From Acanthamoeba castellanii str. Neff (lineage: Eukaryota; Discosea; Longamoebia; Acanthamoebidae), in assembly GCF_000313135.1 (NCBI RefSeq), contig NW_004457441.1, positions 13,692-30,440 of the forward strand: a stretch of DNA of 16,749 nucleotides. The letters run 5' to 3'. The notes below the pieces were generated by a model that was not told the origin of the DNA, did no database searches, and saw only the letters and a program-made list of their open reading frames with translations. This document shows positions 1 through 14,368 of the stretch, piece after piece. Made by a program: the position numbers and the translations under genes. Positions within the stretch are counted from its first letter, which is position 1. The number at the start of each line of letters is the position of its first letter.

Positions 1-2000
<2,000 letters not shown>

Positions 2001-3628: not shown

Positions 3629-4795
3629 TTACTGGGCGGCGGCCTTCTTGTTCTTGGCCTGCTGGGCCTTGCCCTTGGCAGGCGCGGCGGCGGCGGCAGC
3701 GGAAGAGGTATCGGCGATCTCCTCCTTGTGGCCATCGGGGATCTGGATGAGCACGAGCGGCTGGGCGGCGTCGAAGCCCAGGTAGGGCTGGTCGACGATG
3801 AAGTAGCCCCTGCGCTCCAGCTGCAGCCGGTCGCCCTTCTGGGCCAGCCTCAGGTTGGGGTCGCCGAGGGTGCTCGTCACGCTGATGATGTTGGGGTTGA
3901 CCCACTGCTTGAAGTCCTCGTCCTCGGCCAGCTTGGACTTGGTGATCAGGTAGCCGTACTTGCGCAGGTCGACCTGATGATGGTTCACATTTATCAGTGT
4001 GTGTGTGCGGTGTGCGGTGTGTGTGGTGGAAAACACGGGTGGGGGGGGGAAAATACTGGAATGAGATCGTCGATGACGGGCAGCCAGGTGAGCTTCCACT
4101 TGGTGGTGGTGAAATCGCCCTCCAGGTGCAGCTCGCCCTCCATGGCGGTCACCACGCCGTCGTCGGACTTGGTGATCTTCCTCACGATAGCGTTACCCCA
4201 GTTCATCAGCGTGAACTGTTCCAGTTACAACAAAACACGACACGACACGACACGACATACACGACACGCACACGCGGGTGAGTACGAAGTCGTAGGAGAT
4301 GGGAAAAGGGCAACCCAAGCGGCGTGACGTACCTCCTCATTGTCCTTGAGGATCTTGGCGTCCTCCTGCTCCAGGTAGACGGTGTTGGTGAAGGTCAGGA
4401 CCTTCTCGCCGAGCTCCAAGTTCTTGCGGTGGCGAGGCACCGACTTGGTGTAGGGCGTGGCAGGGCCTGCATCGAGCAACAAAAGAGTCATTTATGTGTT
4501 GTGTGTGCGGTGTGTCATGTCGAGTCGTGCCGTGTGTGGTACCGTTGGTGAGGTGGAACGGCACTTTCTTGCTGGTCTCTATGGCGGTGTAGCGGGGGAT
4601 GACGGGATCGATGATCTGCTTGTTGAGCGCCCACAGCTTCTCCATCTCCTGGAGGTTGGTGCGGGACGACGAGCCCTGGGCGATGATGAACTCGCGCAGC
4701 GCCTCCACCGTCAGACCGCGACGCAGCACACCTGAGCGCATAATACAACAATAGATCAGCCCGTGTGTGTTTGTGTGTGTTTGTGTGTGTGTGTA

Positions 4796-4836
<41 letters not shown>

Positions 4837-6812
4837 TTATGCGTACCCTGGAGGGTGGGGAAGGCAGGAGAGTTCCAGCCCTCGACGATGCCCTTGTCGA
4901 CGAAGTACTGCAGCTTACGCTTGGAGAGCAGAGTGTACTGGAAGTTGAGTCGGCTGAAGTCCTTGATCTTGGGGTGGTGCGCCAGGTCGAGGTTCTCGAG
5001 GAACCACTTGTACTGGCCATCCCTGTCGTGGTACTCGTTGGACCGACCGGCGTGGGTCACACCCTCAATCGAGTCCACGATGGGGCACGCGAAATCGTAG
5101 ATCGGGTACACCTTGTACTTGGATCTGTGTGGCATCGAACGCAGTGTCAGCTCTCAGGCATTCACCACACACACACACACACGACCGCACATGCTCAACA
5201 ACAAGGCGGCGCTTACCCAGTCCTGTGGTGAGGAATGAGAACCACGCGGAAGATGTTGGGGTCCCTCATGCAGCCGACCTTGGACTGCATGTCGATCTTG
5301 GCGCGCAGCACGCATTTCTGGCCCTCGGGCGAGCCGAGCTTCATCTCTTGCCACTGGCGGAGGCTCTCCTCGATGGGCTGGTTACGGAAGGGGGACTCGA
5401 TCATCGCCTTCCTCATGGTCTTGAGCTGCACGAGTACAACAATAATAACGGTTAACATATTATTGGCGTAAGCGAAGAAAAGAATGAAGAAAAAGAATGA
5501 AGGATTTACCTCCTCGTTGGGGGTGGTGTCGATGTAGGCGAGGCCCTTCTTGATGAGGTACTCGGCCTTCTCGATGATGAGGTCAAAGTAATCGGACGTG
5601 TAGGTGATCTTCGCCGGCACGATGCCCAGGGTGGCCAGATCAGCAGTGATGCTATCCACAAACTCGTTCTGTTGTAGCGCACACACAACACGACCATAAT
5701 TCAGAAGAAGAAAAAGAACGAAAAAAGAGAGAAAATACGTACGCTCTCCTTGGTGGGGTTGGTGTCGTCGAAGCGGAGGATGAGCTTGCCGTTGTACATG
5801 TGGGCATAGTGGTAGTTGAGCAGAGCGGCCTTGACGTGGCCCATGTGGAGGTAGCCCGACGGCTCCGGAGGGAACCGAGTGACGACCTTGCCCTCCTCAG
5901 CGCCCTCGAGCTCCTGGTACTTGGCCTTGGAGGCCGCCTTGCGCCCACCGGCAGCCGCGCCAGCCGCGGCCGCAGCCTCCTCGGTCTTGACAGTACCGCC
6001 GGCGTACTTGGTCGACACCGCCACGAACTGAGGCAGCGAGTCCACGTACTTGAACCACCTGGAGCTCACGTCAACAAACCGCACACACGACACAGACACA
6101 ATCGCACACGCACACACATACCGGACGAGGTGCTCGTTGGCATGCTTGGTCTGGGAGGCCTTGGCCCAGAGGGGGTGGAGCTTGAGGGCGCCCCACACGC
6201 CGATGTCGGCCAGGGTGACGCCGTAGCCCACGAAGAACGTGCGCAGGGTCAGGTGGGCGTCCAGCAGGCGGAGGGCGGCGTTGAAGGCCTCCTCGTCGGT
6301 GACCTTCTTCGACAGACGCACCAGCGCCAGCTCGAGCCACTGGTCCACCTGTGATGCATCAATTGGCGGAGGCAGCCAAAGGACATTAGAGTTGATTAAT
6401 CGTGCTACTCGCGTAGTACAACGCGAATTGGGATTTCCGTACGTTGCTCTGGGCCTTGGCATCCTCACCAGCAAGACCCTTCGAGGGGTCCTGCCTCGAG
6501 ATGTAACGCGCGATCACGTGATCGCCCCTCAGCACGTCTCTGCATAGAACCCAGAACAATCAAAAAATGGCCTAGAAATCTTGCGCTTGAAAATTTGGCA
6601 GAGGATAACGAGACGAAGTAGAGCCAAGATGAAGAAATTGAGGAGTGCTGCTTGTACCCTTGCGGGAAGAAGGCAAGTTCGGTGATCTCCTGATCCTTGT
6701 CATTCTTGGGAGTGAACTTGATGCCGGTCTTCTTGTCTTGCGGCACGAACTCGGCAGTGACCAGAGCCGTCAGCGGGGGGTCCGATTTGGGGAATCTTGC
6801 GATGACCGACAT
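3629..6812 (-). CDS. GluRS: Cytosolic glutamyl-tRNA synthetase, 755 residues, 11 exons
   Basis: Class I enzyme that charges tRNA-Glu with glutamate. Exons on the minus strand: 6812-6658, 6539-6443, 6348-6122, 6058-5743, 5668-5510, 5425-5217, 5124-4847, 4731-4543, 4466-4333, 4215-4057 and 3973-3629. Every junction keeps the frame, giving 756 codons with TAA. Residues 1-180 resemble the GST-C-like N-terminal domain of eukaryotic GluRS/EPRS (protein interaction). An Ala-rich linker (about 188-202) precedes the catalytic core: [14 protein letters not shown] holds the HIGH motif as HMGH (231-234), then [23 protein letters not shown], and SKRKL (455-459) as the KMSKS equivalent. The C-terminal beta-barrel contains DEDFKQWVN and [11 protein letters not shown], with a low-complexity Ala/Lys tail. 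An in-frame Met lies 45 bases upstream (6857), but [18 protein letters not shown] fits the family start better. It is of the archaeal/eukaryotic type, not bacterial, so cytosolic. Confidence 0.96.
4236..4257. repeat. (CACGA)n pentamer tract in GluRS intron 9
   Basis: Four to five copies of CACGA lie in the intron 4332-4216, immediately upstream (in the transcript sense, as TCGTG) of the acceptor of exon 10. The same pentamer recurs in introns of the F-box and LETM1 genes. Confidence 0.9.
4762..4835. repeat. Long interrupted (TG)n microsatellite in GluRS intron 7
   Basis: More than 30 TG units with three TTTG/ATTTG interruptions fill most of the intron 4846-4732. It is the longest simple repeat in the window and likely varies in length between strains. 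Confidence 0.95.
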
Positions 6813-7521: not shown

Positions 7522-8670
7522 ATGAGCCAATCTTTCCTGGTGCTGCTGCTATGGGTACCTCCTTCAGCTACGATTGTTAGCAGCATTTATGTGTGTAGCG
7601 TAGAAGCAAAGTCTGACGCTCATGCTCGCAGGGGTGGGTCAGGGTAGTAAGGGCGCTGTGGCACTATGTGAAAGCGATGCCTGTCTTCATGCCCTACATC
7701 AAGCGTAGCCCTGCTACTGCTGCGTTTGTGGGTGTCACCTGTGGCAGCAAGAGCGCTGTGCTCTGGGGCCTTGCAAAGGGTACGTACCCCTTGTCCACTC
7801 TCTGAATTGGAGGACCAAAGCCTCACCACTCGCTGTAGGTGCTTTCTTCTCTGGGGTCCAGGCCAACAGAGTACTCCCAAGCGAGGGCTTGCTTGAACTG
7901 GGTGACGCGGTTCCTGATGTGGTGCTCCATGACCCCAGAACCAACTCCAACATCACACTCACCAACATTCTTGGTACTCTTCCTCAACACGCTGCGGTCA
8001 CAGGCCTGCCTAACGCTCATCTCATGCTCCTACTAGGCGAGCATGGCAACATGCCAATTGTGCTCAATTTTGGCAGCATCACCTGACCACCGTGGAGGCT
8101 GAACCTGTCCAAGGTTCAGGCCATGGCCGACAAGCACCGCCACAAGGTGCACTTTGGTCCTTCCTCCACACCAAGACGTGAATACCTCAACTTCGTTGTT
8201 TTGTTCAAAAACAATGCAGGCTGTGTTCCTGTCGGTCTACATTGACGAAGCACATCCAGCTGACGGCTGGGCGCTGCAATGCAATGATGACGATGGTGTG
8301 TGTTTCAGGCGCCCTCAAACTCTCAACCAGGTTTGATCTCGCCCTCTTCCTCCTCCACACTGACGATTATGAGTCTCATCCCTGTATCATGCAGCGGGTA
8401 GCCCTGGCGCGCCAAGCTGAGACGTTCGGCCACCATCTCCCACTCTATGGTACCCTCCACCCCATCCGCACCATCACATCTTCTTGTGTAACTGAACTGT
8501 TTTGCTATGTGCGCGTAGTGGACCACATGAACGATCGGGCCTGCGCCTTGTTCAGCGCCTGGCCAGAGCGTCTCTACATTGTCCAGAGCGGCCGTATAGA
8601 GTTCAAGGGCGGCCCCGGCCCGTTCGGCTACATTCTTCAAGACATTGACGAATGGCTGGCCGACCACTGA
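7522..8670 (+). CDS. DIO: Iodothyronine-deiodinase-like selenoprotein with selenocysteine at an in-frame TGA
   Basis: Six exons, 7522-7554, 7632-7779, 7839-8146, 8220-8330, 8395-8449 and 8519-8670, join in phase to 807 bases, or 268 residues if TGA 8084-8086 is read as selenocysteine (residue 143). The N-terminus is hydrophobic (MSQSFLVLLLWGWVRVV), as in membrane-anchored deiodinases. The thioredoxin-like core has the active site VLNFGSIT-Sec-PPWR (Sec where the family has it), then SVYIDEAHPADGW (168-180), with the conserved Glu-Ala-His at 173-175. The C-terminus has RLYIVQSGRIEFKGGPGPFGY and ends DIDEWLADH. Animal deiodinases remove iodine from thyroid hormones; Dictyostelium has a related selenoprotein. 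The substrate in an amoeba is unknown. The position of a second catalytic His in animal D1 appears to be Pro195 here. The start at 7522 is the Met of a short exon with matching phase; it is less certain than the rest. Confidence 0.9.
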
Positions 8671-8704
8671 GACGAGGCAAGTCGAAGAAGAAGGAGATCT
8701 CGCA

Positions 8705-8782
8705 CTGCGGTCTGCGCATGAAGCGGTGGTCCCAAACACCAACCCCCTGGTGCGGACCACCAGCTGATCCAGCGGACTGCAG
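8705..8782 (+). promoter_or_regulatory. Form II SECIS element in the 3' UTR of the deiodinase gene
   Basis: Read by eye as RNA structure. Helix I pairs 8705-8715 with 8772-8782 (11 pairs, two of them G-U). The non-Watson-Crick core is ATGA at 8718-8721 opposite TGAT at 8765-8768. Helix II pairs AGC GGTGGTCC (8722-8732) with GGACCACC and GCT (8754-8761 and 8763-8765), with one bulged A at 8762. Twelve nucleotides after the ATGA come the unpaired AAA (8734-8736), then a mini-stem CACCA/TGGTG closing the apical loop. That is the layout of a form II SECIS, which directs Sec insertion at the upstream TGA. It starts 35 bases after the stop codon. Confidence 0.9.
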
Positions 8783-8829
8783 GCAGCTCTCTTTCGAAGA
8801 CTGACTCCACCACCAGTGCAATATTCTGT

Positions 8830-8849
8830 TCGGCCCGAATTCGGGCCGA
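8830..8849. repeat. 20-bp perfect palindrome upstream of the pirin gene
   Basis: TCGGCCCGAATTCGGGCCGA equals its own reverse complement. It lies about 145 bases before the pirin start and 48 bases past the SECIS. The half-site CGGGCCGA repeats at 8853-8860. It could be a dimeric factor-binding site for pirin or a structure ending the selenoprotein transcript; neither is shown. Confidence 0.85.
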
Positions 8850-8994
8850 CGGCGGGCCGAGTTTGGAAGATGACAAAATGGATTACATAAGGCCAAGATG
8901 GACCGCTTCATCTTCATAAACAACAACCAACAGCAGCACTACTACTCACACTCGTACGGTAACCCGCTCGCAAGAAGAACAAACAGAAGAAAAG

Positions 8995-9949
8995 ATGAGC
9001 AGCCTGGCCAAGCGCATCAAGATTAGGCGGTCGCAGGAGAGGGGCCACGCCAAGCACGGGTGGCTGAACACCTACCACACCTTCTCCTTCGCCATGTACC
9101 ACGACCCGCGCTTCACCGGCTGGTCCAGCCTCCGCGTACTCAACGAAGACCGCGTAGCGCCCAGCCAGGTACTACACCTCTTTTGCTTCTACACACACCT
9201 TTTTAATCTTCGCTCTTCCTTTCATCTCTACGCTTCCAAATGCTGACATCTGTGCATTCGGACAGGGATTTGGCGCGCATCCGCACAGCAACTACGAGAT
9301 CTTCAGCTACGTGATCTCGGGCAGCCTCGAGCACAGGGACACGCTGTCCAACCGCGAGGTGATCAAGCGCGGCGGCGTCCAGTTCACCTCGGCCGGCAGC
9401 GGCATCATGCACAGCGAGTACAACCACTCGCGCACCAAGCCGGTCCACTTCCTCCAGATCTGGCTCAAGCCCGACCAGCGCGAGCTCGAGCCCAACTATC
9501 AGACCGTCGACTTCACCGACGAGGAGAAGCACGGCCGGCTCTGTCTCATCGTCACCTCCAAGTACCACGGCGCTGACCAGAACACCAACAACAACAACAA
9601 GAAGACGAAGGCCGACACCAGTGCCGATGAGCTGAAGGAGGAGAAGACGCCCATCGTCATCAACCAGAACGCGCAGGTCTACGCGTCGCTGCTGGCCAGG
9701 GACGAGGCGGTGTCGTACGGCTTCGGCCCGGAGCGGTGCGGCTACGTCCACGTGTGCGACACGGGCGGCCGCCTGCGTCTGCTGGACGACCGCAGCGACG
9801 AGGAGATCGTGCTCGAGGCCGGCGACGGCGCCTTCATCCAGGCCGGCACGCGCCTGCAGCTCGTGGGCGCCAACGCCGCGGAGGAGGACGGCAAGCGCGT
9901 CGAGTTCCTGCTCTTCGACCTCGTCAAGGAGAAGGGCAGCTCGTGGTGA
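8995..9949 (+). CDS. PIR: Pirin-family cupin protein, 285 residues
   Basis: Pirins are bicupin iron proteins; members act as transcription co-regulators in animals or as quercetin 2,3-dioxygenases in bacteria. Two exons, 8995-9168 and 9266-9949, join in phase 0 and end at TGA. The N-terminal cupin carries the metal ligands H63, H65, H107 and E109 in [13 protein letters not shown] and [11 protein letters not shown], equivalent to the His-His-His-Glu set of human pirin. The C-terminal cupin contains [18 protein letters not shown] and RVEFLLFDL. An Asn/Lys-rich insertion (about 172-192, encoded by AAC repeats) separates the domains. The sequence looks closer to the bacterial YhhW type than to animal nuclear pirin, so bacterial origin is possible but unproved. 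It follows the selenoprotein on the same strand. Confidence 0.93.
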
Positions 9950-10385: not shown

Positions 10386-12512
10386 TCACATGTCATCAGC
10401 GTGAGGGGTACCGGTGCAGGGGTCGTCCTTGGAGACGGGGAAGAAGTTGAGGAAGACGGTCTTGCCCCACTCCTGCTCCTCCTGGTCGGGCTTGGCGGGC
10501 TTCTCCGGCTGCGGCTGCGGTTGCGGCCCCGACTCGCACATGTCATCGCCGCTGCTGTCGTCGGGCGATCGCTCTCCGGCTTGGCTGCGATCTGACCCCT
10601 GCTCCTGTTTCTGCTCGGCCGCGGCGGCCTCTTCCTGCTCCTCCCGCCGGGCCTTCTCCTCTTCTTCGCGGGACTTGGCTCGGTTGGCCTCGCCGTCGAG
10701 CACCACCACCAGCGGCACCCCGTCCTCGTACTCACCCACCACCCTGCACCACACAATAGAGAAATATAATATAAATATAATATAAACTACAATAAATAAA
10801 ACATAAAAATCAAAATAGATGTAAATAAAAATGCTGACGTGGCGTGGCTGTGCGTACTGGGCGAGGGGATCGATTTGGCCCAGGCAGCGGCTGCCGTGGC
10901 GCGTGGTGTCGATCTGGGAGTTGCGCACGCCGGTCATGATCGGGTGTCTGCTCTTCTCCCGCTTCTGGTGGGCGTCGCCAACCGGCGGATAGAGCCGATT
11001 GGCGGGCTTGATGGGGTAGAAGCTCTCGGTCCACTTGCCCTGCAGCTGGTAGCTCTGTCGTGTGCGTCGTGTGCGTCGTGTCGTGTGTCGTGTCGTGTGT
11101 CGTGTCGTCAGCAGTAGAGCGGCGCGAAGCTTCCGGGGGAGTATAGATACCTTCATGTGCGTGTAGATGCAGAAGATAACGCCTCCGCCCGACTTGAGAA
11201 ACGCCGGAGGCCGTCGCCCAGTGATTTCTGTACAGAAACGTGCGCGTGCGGTGAGCGCGTGTCGTGTGTGTCGTGTCGTGTGTCGTGTGTGTTGAAGGCC
11301 AGACAGAGAGCAGCAGTGAAGGTACCTTCATTGTCTCACTGCCGGACATGGCGGCGAAGTAGATGATCGTGTCATACTTCATGAAGAGGTTGTCATCGTA
11401 GTCGACATAGCTGTAGAACCCTGCGGCGGGTTGGCCGCCTTGTTGTCGTGATTGCACATGAGGTGGCATATGTCGGCGTGAATGCCAAACTTCTTCAGCT
11501 GCCTGTGTGTGTGTGTGTTAGTGTAAAAGATAGAATTAATCGACAAAAAACATGACCCAGAAAGGAGCGAAATGTGTTGTGTGCACACCTGATGGTGTCC
11601 ATGTCGTAGTTGTTGTTGTGGGACGTGTGGTAGGTCACCACCAGAACCCGCAGAGTCTGCATTTCCGACACTCGCGTAAGCTCCAAAAACACGACACACG
11701 ACACGCACCACACACACAGCTAAGAAGAAGAAGAAGAAAGAGAAGAGCACTTTGCGACGGAGGTATTCGCGGCGCCAGTCGATGGGGTAGTTATCATCGA
11801 AGGCCTGCTGAAGCGATCGGCCGGCGTCGACCAGCCACGGATCGCTCTCGCTGCCCCTCTCGTCGCGCCACGCACCCTCGGGCGGCGGCTGCACTCCCCG
11901 CCGCGCATCGTTCTCCTGTAGTTCCCCCCGCCGCTGTCAGTCATCGTCGCTTTCGTTCTTTTGCTCCTTCGTTCTTCGTTCTTTGTGCCGCACGACACGA
12001 CACACACGGCACGACACGCGCGGGCAAGGGTGCAGCGTACGGGCAGCTCGACGTTGGGTCGGGCGAAGTGGAGGCGGCGCCAGTGCGGGAGCCAGAGGGC
12101 GGGGTCGAGGGCCAGGCTGCGCCAGAGCCGGCTGGTGCGGGCCACGTCGCCGGCCAGGTGGGCCAGGGGCACGAAGCCGAGCACGTGCTGCATGACCTCG
12201 ACCGGCAGGACCTCCTCGATCGACACATCTTCCGGCGACCGCGTAGAAGATGATGATGAAGAGTCGTCGATGTCATGGAGAGAAGAGAAAGGGGGGATGG
12301 AATGAGCAAGAGGGAGAGCAAGAACATTCGATGGGAGAATGAAAGGATGAAGAGGAGGAAGAGCATGATGATGACGATGAAGAGTGCTGCATGTTCTTGT
12401 CCATAGGAATGTTGATGGGAGCAGAAGATGAAGAAGATGAAGATGGAGAAGATGAAGAAGAGATTTGAGGAAGAGCAAGGTGGTGGAAGAAGCTGCTGGG
12501 CGTAGTAGCCAT
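10386..12512 (-). CDS. F-box protein fused to a glutamine-amidotransferase/ThuA-like domain
   Basis: Probable SCF ubiquitin-ligase receptor. Minus-strand exons: 12512-12326 (tentative, Ser-rich start MATTPSSFFHH), 12228-12041, 11933-11751 (or from 11915), 11680-11589, 11502-11326, 11227-11151, 11054-10858 and 10743-10386. The second exon is the F-box (VSIEEVLPVEVMQHVLGFVP, then LWRSLALDPALW). Next comes a segment rich in acidic and aromatic residues (DPWLVDAGRSLQQAF, then DWRREYLRRK), then an alpha/beta domain with LRVLVVTYHTSHNNNYDM, DTIIYFAAMSG, LKSGGGVIF, HPIMTGV and YEDGVPLVVVLDG, as in class I amidotransferase-like or ThuA folds. I see no convincing Cys-His-Glu triad. A Glu/Gln-rich insertion separates the last strand, TVFLNFFPVSKD, from the rest. 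Near 11411-11460 and 11193-11227 the best-matching frame needs a shift or an unusual splice (see findings). The first exon and start are weak. Confidence 0.68.
11057..11108. repeat. CGTGT-type repeat tract in an F-box gene intron
   Basis: Imperfect repeats of TCGTGTGCG and TCGTGTCGTGTG fill the start of the minus-strand intron 11150-11055, next to the acceptor of the exon at 11054. A sister tract lies at about 11257-11295 in the preceding intron. Confidence 0.85.
12240..12490. repeat. GAAGAT/GATGAA-rich low-complexity block
   Basis: The plus strand is made largely of GAA, GAT and GAG triplets; on the minus strand the same bases read TCTTCATCT, giving Ser runs. This is the 5' part of the F-box gene and may be coding (poly-Ser N-terminus) or 5' UTR. 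Replication slippage here could explain why the start frame is not clean. Confidence 0.7.
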
Positions 12513-13043
12513 TCCTCTACGTTTTCCTCAAACAAAAACAAACAAAAGAAAGAGAGCTTCGCTACACTTCGTCTTCTACTGCGCAAGTAGAAGGCGGAAG
12601 GAAGCGAAGAGGTGCTGTGCAGAGAGAGAGAGCGGTGGTGGGTAGAGGGGGAATGAAAAAAACAAAGGGAAGGAGTTGGGGGCGGGAGGGCGACGTTGTC
12701 CTGATGATGGCAGCGCCGGCCATGATCCGGTTGACGGCTGCGGCTGGCGGAAGCCAAACCGCCGAAGACCTCTCGCGGAGATAAACACGACAACCGTTGG
12801 CACTTACACACAAATCCTCACAATTGCATAATTAATATTGACAAGATAGTCCGTTTGATATTTATTTTCATTATTTATTTTACTTATAAAATTATTAATA
12901 GTAACAGAAAAAGAAAGAAAGAAAAAAAGAATGAATGCGACCGGTTTGCGGACGTCTTCGTTTGTGGCAAAGTGGTAGAGGTACAGGCTGGTGAGGGACT
13001 AAGCCATCATCAGCATCAGTCGAGAGTGTTTGGGGGGGGGGCT
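12513..13043. other. Spacer between the F-box gene start and the coiled-coil gene stop
   Basis: No gene is recognised. A minus-strand frame stays open up to 12811, in phase with the F-box exon, so 5' exons or 5' UTR of that gene may lie here; a GTAGAG donor at 12520 and Met codons at 12811 and 12725 are candidates. The part 12830-12930 is AT- and A-rich and probably contains the 3' end or promoter signals of the neighbours. Confidence 0.5.
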
Positions 13044-14368
13044 TTACACGGTGCGCTTGTTGTAACCGCCCTTGCTGGCCGGCAGATAGGCCCGCCGCTC
13101 GTGCAGCTCGCGCTCCATCCACCACGACCCACCGAGCGGCAGCGTGTTCTTGACCTCCTCCAGGTAGGCCTCGGCCGCCGACAGCCGCTGCTTGGCCTCC
13201 TCCAGCGCCGCCTCGGCCGCCGCCTTGGCCTCCTCAGCGCGCTGGCGACCAGCCTCGGCCTCGCGTCGGGCGGCCTGGGCGGCGGCGCGGGCGGTCGACG
13301 CGCGCTCGGTGGCTTCGCGCGCGGCCTGCGCAGCGCGCTCGGCCTTCTTCACAGCGGCCTCCTGCGTGATCTTGGCCTTGCGCAGCGGCAGCGGGTCCGA
13401 CGACAGGTGCTGGGCCAGCTCGTTCTTGGCCCGGTTCTTGGCCACGATGGAGCCCTCCTCGGAGAGCCGCGTGAGCTCGGCCGTGCGCGCGTTGAAGGCC
13501 TCCTCCTGGGCCTGGAGCTCGTGGAGCGCGGCGTCGAGCTCCTGCTTGGCCGCCCGCAGCTCCTCCTCGCGCGCGTGCGCCTCCTGCTCCTTGGCGATGG
13601 CCTCCTGCTCGGCGGCCTTGGCGTCGGCCTCCTGGCGGGTGGCGGTGCGCACGGCCTCGGCGGCCTCCTGGTCGCGAGCCTCCGACGCCTGGAACGCCGC
13701 CGTCACCTGCCCCCAAAAAGAAAACAAACGAAAAGAAAAAGCAAAAAAAAGAAAAGAAAAGCGGTTGATCAGAGATGAACACCCCATTTCTCTTCAAGAT
13801 GGAGCACAGTGATAGAGGTGAAGAGGCCAGGGCGTGCGGTGGGTGGTGTGGGGGTGGGGGGGTACCTCGTCGAGGAGCTTCTGGGCCTTTTCGATGTCAT
13901 CCTTGTTGCCCTGGGGCGCGTTGACCAGCTCCTTCCAGTCGACCCCATACTTGAAGATGAGCATGTGGATCAGTGGCACCTTCTTGGCCACGCCCGTCTC
14001 GATCGCCCCCAGCGACCGCAACCTGCACGCCACCAGTTCATCAATCTTTGTTAAGCCCCATGAAAAAGATGTGCAACCCCAAGAAGAAGAGGAGGGAGGG
14101 CGGCGGGGGGGGGGTACTTGTCGCGCATGGCCTGGACGGTCATGGTCTCCTTGAAGTGCTCGAGGAACCGGTGGGCCTGGAACTCGTCGAGCTCGGTGCC
14201 GTCGGCCTTGCGCTCCAGGTCCAGCTCGGCGGCCTTGTGCACAAAGCTCCACAGCTTCTCGGCCTCGCCCTTGGCCTGCAGCTGGTCCCAGAAGGCGTTG
14301 AGGAACCACACGGCCTGGTCCTTGTAGGGCCGCGCCGCCAGCTGCGCCAACTTCTGCTTCTCTGCCAT
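13044..14368 (-). CDS. Coiled-coil protein with helical N-terminal module, 356 residues, uncharacterised
   Basis: Three exons, 14368-14118, 14022-13866 and 13706-13044, join in frame and end at TAA. Residues 1-136 form a helical module: KDQAVWFLNAFWDQLQAKGE, LDEFQAHRFLEHFKETMTV, then KVPLIHMLIFKYGVDWKELV. Residues about 137-325 are an Ala/Glu/Arg-rich continuous coiled coil without prolines until its end. The C-terminus has an unusual aromatic tail, GGSWWMERELHERRAYLP (about 328-345). I have the impression that similar N-terminal and tail motifs occur in unnamed proteins of other protists, but cannot verify it. It may be a cytoskeletal or scaffold protein; no catalytic motif is visible. The start is the first Met and fits the module. 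Coding GC is very high, which produces long false frames on the opposite strand. Confidence 0.87.

What the first reader, a model, noticed from the sequence alone, without database searches (positions are those of the whole stretch)
7522..8670. Deiodinase-like selenoprotein in an amoeba genome, hidden behind an in-frame TGA
The TGA at 8084-8086 falls exactly at the selenocysteine position of the deiodinase active site (FGSIT-Sec-PPW). Coding sequence continues for 125 more residues through family hallmarks (SVYIDEAHPADGW, GGPGPFGY). All five splice junctions are in phase. Deiodinases are best known from vertebrates; an amoeba has no thyroid hormone, so the substrate is open. Standard annotation would truncate or split the gene.
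Basis: partly seen in the sequence, partly recalled or inferred. Interest (0 to 1): 0.9.

Follow-up and report, generated by a model that had tools for sequence, protein, structure and literature searches.

The report
Acanthamoeba deiodinase-like selenoprotein gene
An Acanthamoeba gene that public annotation cuts short at a TGA codon is very probably a full-length selenium-containing relative of the enzymes that activate thyroid hormone, and its active site follows a bacterial rather than a vertebrate design.

Summary
Confirmed. One in-frame TGA (8084-8086, residue 122) sits at the catalytic selenocysteine position. Database proteins match both halves as spliced: P0122 ends at the TGA, P0008 starts at the first Met after it. 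NCBI's Acanthamoeba castellanii Neff entry ACA1_176740 is this gene truncated at the TGA. A pattern shared with two other selenoprotein SECIS elements (SelW-like, SPS2) matches only those three places in the 38.4-Mb genome. The genome has tRNA-Sec (UCA) and exon-level matches to eEFSec, SBP2, SepSecS, PSTK and SPS2. It is a new member of a known kind: deiodinase-like selenoproteins are published from Dictyostelium and bacteria. New is the active site: it lacks the proximal Cys, distal Cys, second loop-D His and clamp Arg of Dio3, but carries Cys170 in loop D like acidobacterial and myxobacterial Sec forms, where loop-D and distal Cys are nearly mutually exclusive. I infer a thiol-recycled redox or dehalogenating selenoenzyme, not a thyroid-hormone enzyme.

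The parts
7522..7554 (+). exon 1 (start codon ATG 7522; hydrophobic N-terminus)
   Evidence: same N-terminus in P0122
7632..7779 (+). exon 2
   Evidence: P0122
7839..7973 (+). exon 3
   Evidence: P0122
8037..8146 (+). exon 4, holds the active site FGSIT-Sec-PPW
   Evidence: P0122 ends here at the TGA, P0008 begins here at the first Met after it
8084..8086 (+). in-frame TGA, read as selenocysteine (residue 122)
   Evidence: 74 of 79 readable bacterial homologues carry TGA at the same place
8220..8330 (+). exon 5 (SVYIDEAHPADGW, loop D with Cys163 and Cys170)
   Evidence: P0008
8395..8449 (+). exon 6
   Evidence: P0008
8519..8670 (+). exon 7 (WPERLY, GGPGPFGY, terminal stop TGA 8668-8670)
   Evidence: P0008
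8702..8784 (+). type II SECIS element behind the stop: helix I, 6x6 internal loop with AUGA (8718) opposite GA, helix II of 11 pairs with one bulge, CAAA, 5-pair mini-helix and 6-nt loop

Best explanation
The locus is an intact Acanthamoeba gene for a deiodinase-family selenoprotein. Supported by comparison, not by experiment: UGA at codon 122 is decoded as Sec with the help of the SECIS behind the stop, SBP2, eEFSec and tRNA-Sec, and translation ends at the second UGA. That stop lies 47 nt before the SECIS AUGA; I recall (no call) that Sec decoding needs a longer distance, so the SECIS would serve codon 122, 425 nt upstream of it in the mRNA, and not the terminator (inference). The product has a thioredoxin-like catalytic domain behind a hydrophobic N-terminus. 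Inferred mechanism: the Sec122 selenolate takes an oxidising group (halogen cation or peroxide oxygen) from a small molecule; Ser119, Thr121, Tyr149, Glu152 and His154, which align with the proposed deiodinase proton relay, supply the proton; Cys170 in loop D then forms a selenenyl sulphide with Sec122, which glutathione or thioredoxin reduces. It is probably not a thyroid-hormone enzyme.
For: Frame, introns and Sec position. Pfam 130.5 bits; PDB sequences Dio3 1.7e-27 and Dio2 1.7e-22. Halves seen as spliced database proteins; Neff annotation ends at the same place. SECIS: fold -49.5 kcal/mol, z -5.94, 0 of 200 shuffles as stable; 1 of 2000 shuffles of 8671-8892 passes the same scanner settings; pattern at 3 places in 38.4 Mb, each behind a selenoprotein gene, backwards control 0. 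Sec machinery. The gene's own terminator is TGA, so UGA is not generally reassigned. TGA at the same codon in 74 of 79 readable bacterial relatives. Relay residues S119, T121, Y149, E152, H154 conserved (roles from passages of PMC11592359, numbering to Dio3 is mine). Loop-D Cys among 74 bacterial Sec forms: 39 loop-D only, 31 a Cys 58-83 residues after Sec only, 1 both, 1 proximal only, 2 none; absent from all 5 Cys forms (which corrects).
Against: No protein-level proof of Sec. Rfam SECIS_1 does not match the element, even on a 381-base stretch at E up to 10, nor in the genome search (where 4 of 14 control genomes also ring, all below cut-off). My scanner alone is not specific: 40 raw hits in 236,952 bases scanned, and by core energy the window element is second to a GTGA hit that is no known SECIS. 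The scanner settings were set after seeing the element. The genome pattern was written with all three SECIS elements in view, so finding these three is by construction; only the lack of other hits and the empty control inform. Protein matches to the machinery are exon by exon and below the whole-protein cut-offs (PSTK 38.3 of 382 bits, SepSecS best 74.6 of 225, SelD-type 25.5 bits for the SPS2 locus). The thioredoxin reductase selenoprotein published for A. castellanii (PMC8038987) was not found here with TIGR01438. The N-terminal hydrophobic stretch is weak for a membrane anchor (best 19-residue mean 1.28). The Cys170 role rests on residue patterns alone; no structure was predicted. The distal window of 58-83 residues is wider than the 69-76 given for Dio1-3.
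Confidence: 0.85

Rival explanations
1. The TGA is an ordinary stop. The gene is a pseudogene or makes only a short 121-residue protein, and the downstream frame is a relic.
For: Public annotation ends there (P0123, ACA1_176740); the downstream half is recorded as a separate protein (P0008).
Against: The downstream 125 codons are open, conserved and spliced in frame. The TGA is at the family's Sec position in 74 of 79 readable bacterial relatives. A SECIS follows. The same end point appears in the Neff record and in P0122.
Confidence: 0.03
2. TGA is a sequencing error or a recent mutation of a Cys codon (TGC or TGT).
For: Cys forms of the family exist: 5 of 79 readable bacterial loci, and P0001, P0005.
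Against: The Neff protein and the 'lgn' protein P0122 also end at this codon; a SECIS would have no reason to exist.
Confidence: 0.02
3. A true selenoprotein that works as a selenium-dependent peroxidase (peroxiredoxin-like) on lipid or organic hydroperoxides rather than as a dehalogenase.
For: Dio3 clamp Arg275 and second loop-D His219 align with Pro230 and Pro174. PMC11592359 describes a peroxiredoxin motif in deiodinases (passages). PMC1088965 suggests a redox role for bacterial members (passages). P0001 is named peroxiredoxin by its source.
Against: The EAHP loop D and five relay residues are deiodinase features; no activity data.
Confidence: 0.45
4. It is a dehalogenase with a natural non-thyroid substrate, a halogenated molecule made by the amoeba or taken up with food.
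For: Family chemistry; five of six relay residues kept.
Against: The Dictyostelium homologue didA was ruled out as the DIF-1 dechlorinase because null mutants keep the activity (PMC3205185, passages). No halogenated signal is known to me from Acanthamoeba (recalled, not searched).
Confidence: 0.25

Closest known systems
Dictyostelium discoideum deiodinase-like selenoprotein (didA)
   Same: Amoebozoan, UGA-encoded Sec, type II SECIS with AAA in the apical bulge (PMC2375036, passages; gene name from PMC3205185, passages)
   Different: Its sequence is not held, so place in the tree and loop-D Cys are not compared; its SECIS is described with an extremely long mini-stem and two U-U mismatches, not seen here
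Bacterial deiodinase-like selenoproteins (acidobacterial and myxobacterial type)
   Same: Sec at the same codon; loop D with [VI]C[YF]; 39 of 74 Sec loci have this Cys and neither a proximal nor a distal one, like the amoeba; up to 44% identity over the matched part among the 80 loci kept
   Different: The amoeba gene has six introns and a eukaryotic SECIS behind the stop; the bacterial genes were not tested in detail for bacterial hairpins (five folded)
Vertebrate iodothyronine deiodinases Dio1-3
   Same: Catalytic domain, Sec, EAHP loop, ERLY; Ser, Thr, Tyr, Glu and first His of the proposed proton relay
   Different: Against Dio3: proximal Cys168 is Ile120, distal Cys239 absent, second relay His219 is Pro174 with no His in loop D at all, clamp Arg275 is Pro230; extra Cys163 and Cys170 in loop D
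Acanthamoeba castellanii thioredoxin reductase TrxR-L
   Same: Predicted selenoprotein of the same genus, also truncated at UGA in the database (PMC8038987, passages)
   Different: Different enzyme; its SECIS is described there as type 1

Membership tests
Eukaryotic selenoproteins | in-frame UGA with conserved coding sequence on both sides | tested here: met
Eukaryotic selenoproteins | SECIS behind the stop (AUGA/GA core, helix II, AAR) | tested here: met
   the Rfam SECIS_1 model does not match it
Eukaryotic selenoproteins | Sec machinery in the same genome | tested here: met
   tRNA-Sec 72.2 bits over cut-off, anticodon TCA (8, 25); eEFSec fragment 3.8e-39 to 5izk; SBP2 exon 6.9e-13, only PDB match at E up to 0.01; SepSecS 9 exon matches; PSTK 3 exon matches, weak; SPS2 with TGA, weak profile match, read by eye (23, 30)
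Eukaryotic selenoproteins | Sec present in the protein | not testable with these tools
   needs 75Se labelling or mass spectrometry
Deiodinase family PF00837 | profile match over the curated cut-off | tested here: met
   130.5 bits against 27
Deiodinase family PF00837 | catalytic Sec (or Cys) after the FGSxT strand | tested here: met
   residue 122
Iodothyronine deiodinase (true thyroid-hormone enzyme) | full proposed proton relay Ser-Thr-Tyr-Glu-His-His | tested here: not met
   five of six kept; second His aligns with Pro174 and loop D has no His
Iodothyronine deiodinase (true thyroid-hormone enzyme) | basic clamp residue (Arg275 in Dio3, Lys241 in Dio2) | tested here: not met
   Pro230
Iodothyronine deiodinase (true thyroid-hormone enzyme) | proximal Cys (Dio1, Dio3) and distal Cys 69-76 residues after Sec (Dio1-3) | tested here: not met
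   Ile120; Cys only at 41, 48 and 84 residues after Sec
Iodothyronine deiodinase (true thyroid-hormone enzyme) | deiodination of T4 or T3 | not testable with these tools
   enzyme assay needed
Bacterial-type Sec-deiodinase with loop-D Cys | [VI]C[YF] in loop D together with Sec | tested here: met
   Cys170 in GVCFRRPQT; 40 of 74 bacterial Sec loci
Bacterial-type Sec-deiodinase with loop-D Cys | one clade with the bacterial loop-D Cys rows | tested here: inconclusive
   best tree puts the amoeba and P0117 on the side of the eukaryote-like and animal rows (89/81, not starred), but holding 59 loop-D-Cys rows together is not rejected, p-AU 0.283

The most novel reading that the evidence does not exclude
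The gene descends from a soil-bacterial Sec-deiodinase whose UGA was first decoded with a bacterial hairpin inside the coding sequence, and was re-equipped in the amoeba with introns and a eukaryotic SECIS behind the stop. It would be a selenoprotein that changed decoding systems while keeping its Sec, and a third recycling design (loop-D Cys) beside the proximal and distal cysteines of vertebrate deiodinases.
Probability: 0.2. Interest if true: 0.75.

Novelty: new member of a known kind. Interest (0 to 1): 0.5.

Why it matters
It corrects a truncated, nameless gene in a widely used amoeba and adds a well-supported selenoprotein to a genus where another selenoenzyme is studied as a possible drug target (PMC11459619, search listing with start of abstract only). 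It gives a eukaryotic deiodinase relative with bacterial-type active-site cysteines, in which two open questions, how oxidised deiodinases are recycled and what the family did without thyroid hormone, can be tested by single Cys exchanges.

Tried and rejected
Rfam SECIS_1 as a detector: no match at the locus and one sub-threshold match in the genome (28.3 bits, cut-off 35), which lies behind a SelW-like gene. A covariance model of three SECIS elements (R1) was given a wrong structure by RNAalifold and not used; further alignments meant for a better model put gaps inside the stem and were dropped for a sequence pattern. TIGR01438 for the published TrxR-L: the matches read by eye as glutathione-reductase-like (C145) and another reductase (C124), and no Cys-TGA-Gly end was found in the stretches looked at. 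The top SelB-profile matches read by eye as EF1A, EF-Tu, an EF1A paralogue, an EF2-type GTPase and eIF2-gamma; the eEFSec is on C73. Cofilin matches C62 and C200 gave no species information. Viral contigs: 18 stretches match the peptide patterns, none encodes a relative by tblastn. My first count of loop-D Cys (39 loop-D only, 30 distal only, 2 both) used a pattern that wrongly took a distal Cys of L108 for loop D; one search corrects it. No structure prediction was run, because the spliced protein is not a straight translation of the window, as the tool requires. A search for print on an Acanthamoeba deiodinase: papers holding the words were 1, 7 (6 listed), 7 (6 listed) and 2; judged by titles, abstract starts and the passages read, none describes it. 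An earlier count gave residue 121 and 8719; 122 and 8718 are right.

Full report
What is there. On the + strand at 7522-8670 lies a seven-exon gene. All six introns (59-77 nt) are GT-AG; the joined coding sequence is 744 nt and contains a single in-frame TGA before its terminal TGA. The internal TGA, 8084-8086, is codon 122 of 247, between FGSIT and PPW.

Independent support for the gene model. A protein search with the read-through product, then with an alignment of it and its four hits, returned P0008 (113 aa, 27 contigs), identical to residues 135-247; it starts at the first methionine after the TGA and runs across introns 4, 5 and 6 without them. A search with the first 121 residues returned two proteins: P0122 (121 aa, 119 identical), which crosses introns 1, 2 and 3 and ends at the TGA, and P0123, NCBI's ACA1_176740 of A. 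castellanii Neff, 95 aa, 'uncharacterized', which starts 26 residues later, also ends in FGSIT at the TGA and differs from P0122 at two junctions. Unspliced DNA could not give P0008 and P0122, so I take them to come from transcripts; I could not fetch their contigs.

Species. An actophorin exon of this genome is identical to PDB actophorin 1ahq over 76 of 76 aligned residues (that 1ahq is the A. castellanii protein is recalled). With P0122 and P0123, the window is Acanthamoeba, close to but not the same as Neff.

Family. Pfam-A gives one family, PF00837, 130.5 bits over residues 107-244. PDB sequences give Dio3 (1.7e-27) and Dio2 (1.7e-22), then thioredoxins at 0.096 and above. In the genome search the family matched three stretches, all at this locus.

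SECIS. 47 nt after the stop stands AUGA (8718). The stretch 8700-8787 folds at -49.5 kcal/mol (z -5.94, 0 of 200 shuffles as stable), paired from 8702 to 8784: helix I, a 6x6 internal loop with AUGA opposite GA, an 11-pair helix II with one bulge, CAAA, a 5-pair mini-helix and a 6-nt loop. This is the type II form (features as in passages of PMC13188914, and PMC2375036). In 2000 dinucleotide shuffles of 8671-8892, one passed the same scanner settings, which were set after seeing the real element. The scanner alone is not specific: 40 raw hits in 236,952 bases of fetched sequence, both strands, the window element second by core energy. Rfam SECIS_1 does not match the window element; its one genome match, 28.3 bits, below cut-off (4 of 14 control genomes also ring, below cut-off), lies behind a SelW-like gene whose exon join gives Cys-Asn-Ala-TGA (CxxU; my reading). 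The scanner found a third element behind a selenophosphate synthetase with KG-TGA-GCKV (motif recalled). Written with these three in view, the pattern ATGAAGN8CCNAAN{24,30}CTGA matches exactly those three places in 38,447,144 bases; read backwards it matches none.

Machinery. tRNA-Sec, 72.2 bits, the only one of 8 matches over the cut-off, anticodon TCA; the two weaker matches checked are tRNA-Ser. eEFSec on C73, a typed fragment of which matches 5izk, selenocysteine-specific elongation factor, at 3.8e-39. An L7Ae-type exon on C32 whose only PDB match at E up to 0.01 is SBP2, 6.9e-13. SepSecS, nine exon matches on C242. PSTK, three exon matches on C34, best 1.1e-8. SPS2 on C44 (25.5 bits) and a further SelD-type gene on C161. 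Being split by introns, SepSecS, PSTK, SelD-type and SelB-type matches stay below the whole-protein cut-offs.

Relatives. In the collection of one genome per species, 94 stretches encode a relative, of which the best 80 were kept. The active site could be read in 79 of 80 (not L095): 74 carry TGA, 4 TGC, 1 TGT at the Sec position. Bacterial deiodinase-like selenoproteins are known since 2005 (PMC1088965, passages). The viral collection gave none. The tree used 139 of 201 rows after thinning at 80% likeness; P0008, P0122 and P0123 (the same gene), L095 and short rows were left out beforehand; of 360 protein hits only the 120 listed could be used; 142 columns, too few to resolve many forks. The amoeba joins P0117 (116 aa, source jgi, 52% identical) at 100/95. 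That pair lies on one side of a split with 41 rows that include Dio2, Dio3 and mostly proteins with a His in loop D, two of them from a eukaryote collection (89/81, below the tool's mark); the other 96 rows are bacterial-type. The root is at the midpoint only. Holding 59 loop-D-Cys rows, the amoeba among them, together is not rejected (p-AU 0.283). So transfer from bacteria is neither shown nor excluded. Dictyostelium could not be placed, since its sequence is not held.

Active site. Against Dio3, the amoeba keeps Ser119, Thr121, Tyr149, Glu152, His154 (Dio3 Ser167, Thr169, Tyr197, Glu200, His202) and Glu214 (Glu259). It has Pro174 for His219, Pro230 for Arg275, Ile120 for the proximal Cys168 and no distal Cys239 equivalent; loop D has no His. 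Roles are taken from passages of PMC11592359 and PMC9141512, the transfer from Dio2 to Dio3 numbers being mine: relay and clamp, and, for the proximal Cys of Dio1, reduction by glutathione; [quoted passage not shown] The amoeba has Cys163 and Cys170 in loop D. Among the 74 bacterial Sec forms, 39 have a loop-D Cys only, 31 a Cys 58-83 residues after Sec only, 1 both, 1 a proximal Cys only, 2 none; among the 5 Cys forms none has the loop-D Cys and 4 have the distal one. These loci are related, so they are not 74 independent cases. The Cys-form rows L053, P0001 and P0005 form one group inside the loop-D clade and lack that Cys as well. This is what one expects if one partner thiol per enzyme resolves the oxidised selenium. 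The role of Cys170 is an inference; no structure or assay backs it.

Function. Best guess: a redox selenoenzyme, possibly membrane-bound, recycled by thiols, acting on a halogenated or peroxidised small molecule. Dehalogenation and peroxidase action cannot be told apart here. In Dictyostelium the homologue is not the DIF-1 dechlorinase (PMC3205185, passages). The N-terminal hydrophobic stretch (best mean 1.28) is modest, so a membrane anchor is a possibility only.

Novelty. Family and amoebozoan occurrence are known (PMC2375036, passages). In the held library I found no paper on an Acanthamoeba deiodinase (judged by titles, abstract starts and passages). The gene model with SECIS, the link to the truncated Neff record and the bacterial-type loop-D Cys in a eukaryote are, as far as these searches reach, new.

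Noticed in passing
L020 / G000:C122:57993-58062 (-): SelW-like selenoprotein gene with a spliced Cys-Asn-Ala-TGA motif (read by eye) and a SECIS sharing the ATGAAG...CC.AA...CTGA pattern.
   Followed up: partly
L026 / G000:C44:868648-869342 (-): Selenophosphate synthetase SPS2 with TGA in KG-TGA-GCKV (read by eye) and a SECIS of the same pattern; a further SelD-type gene, whose Sec position I did not check, is on C161.
   Followed up: partly
G000:C145, G000:C124: The thioredoxin reductase selenoprotein published for A. castellanii was not found with TIGR01438; only glutathione-reductase-like and another reductase gene appeared.
   Followed up: partly
L047-L126 (bacterial loci): Of 79 readable bacterial deiodinase-like genes 74 carry TGA at the active site, and loop-D Cys and distal Cys are almost mutually exclusive.
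   Followed up: partly
P0123 (NCBI ACA1_176740): The Neff reference protein of this gene is truncated at the TGA, starts 26 residues late and differs at two splice junctions from the spliced form P0122.
   Followed up: yes
P0002-P0004, P0015, P0056, P0062, P0113: Deiodinase-like proteins, P0056 and P0113 from a eukaryote collection, whose predicted start lies just after the Sec position; perhaps further selenoproteins cut at UGA.
   Followed up: no
window 8995-9949 (+): Pirin gene directly downstream; its ATG at 8995 is 211 nt after the end of the SECIS.
   Followed up: no
window 3629-6513 (-): Glutaminyl/glutamyl-tRNA synthetase gene in several exons on the other strand.
   Followed up: no
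window 365-1051 (-), 11720-12817 (-), 13044-13793 (-): LETM1-like ribosome-binding domain, F-box-like domain and F-actin-bundling C-terminal domain genes.
   Followed up: no
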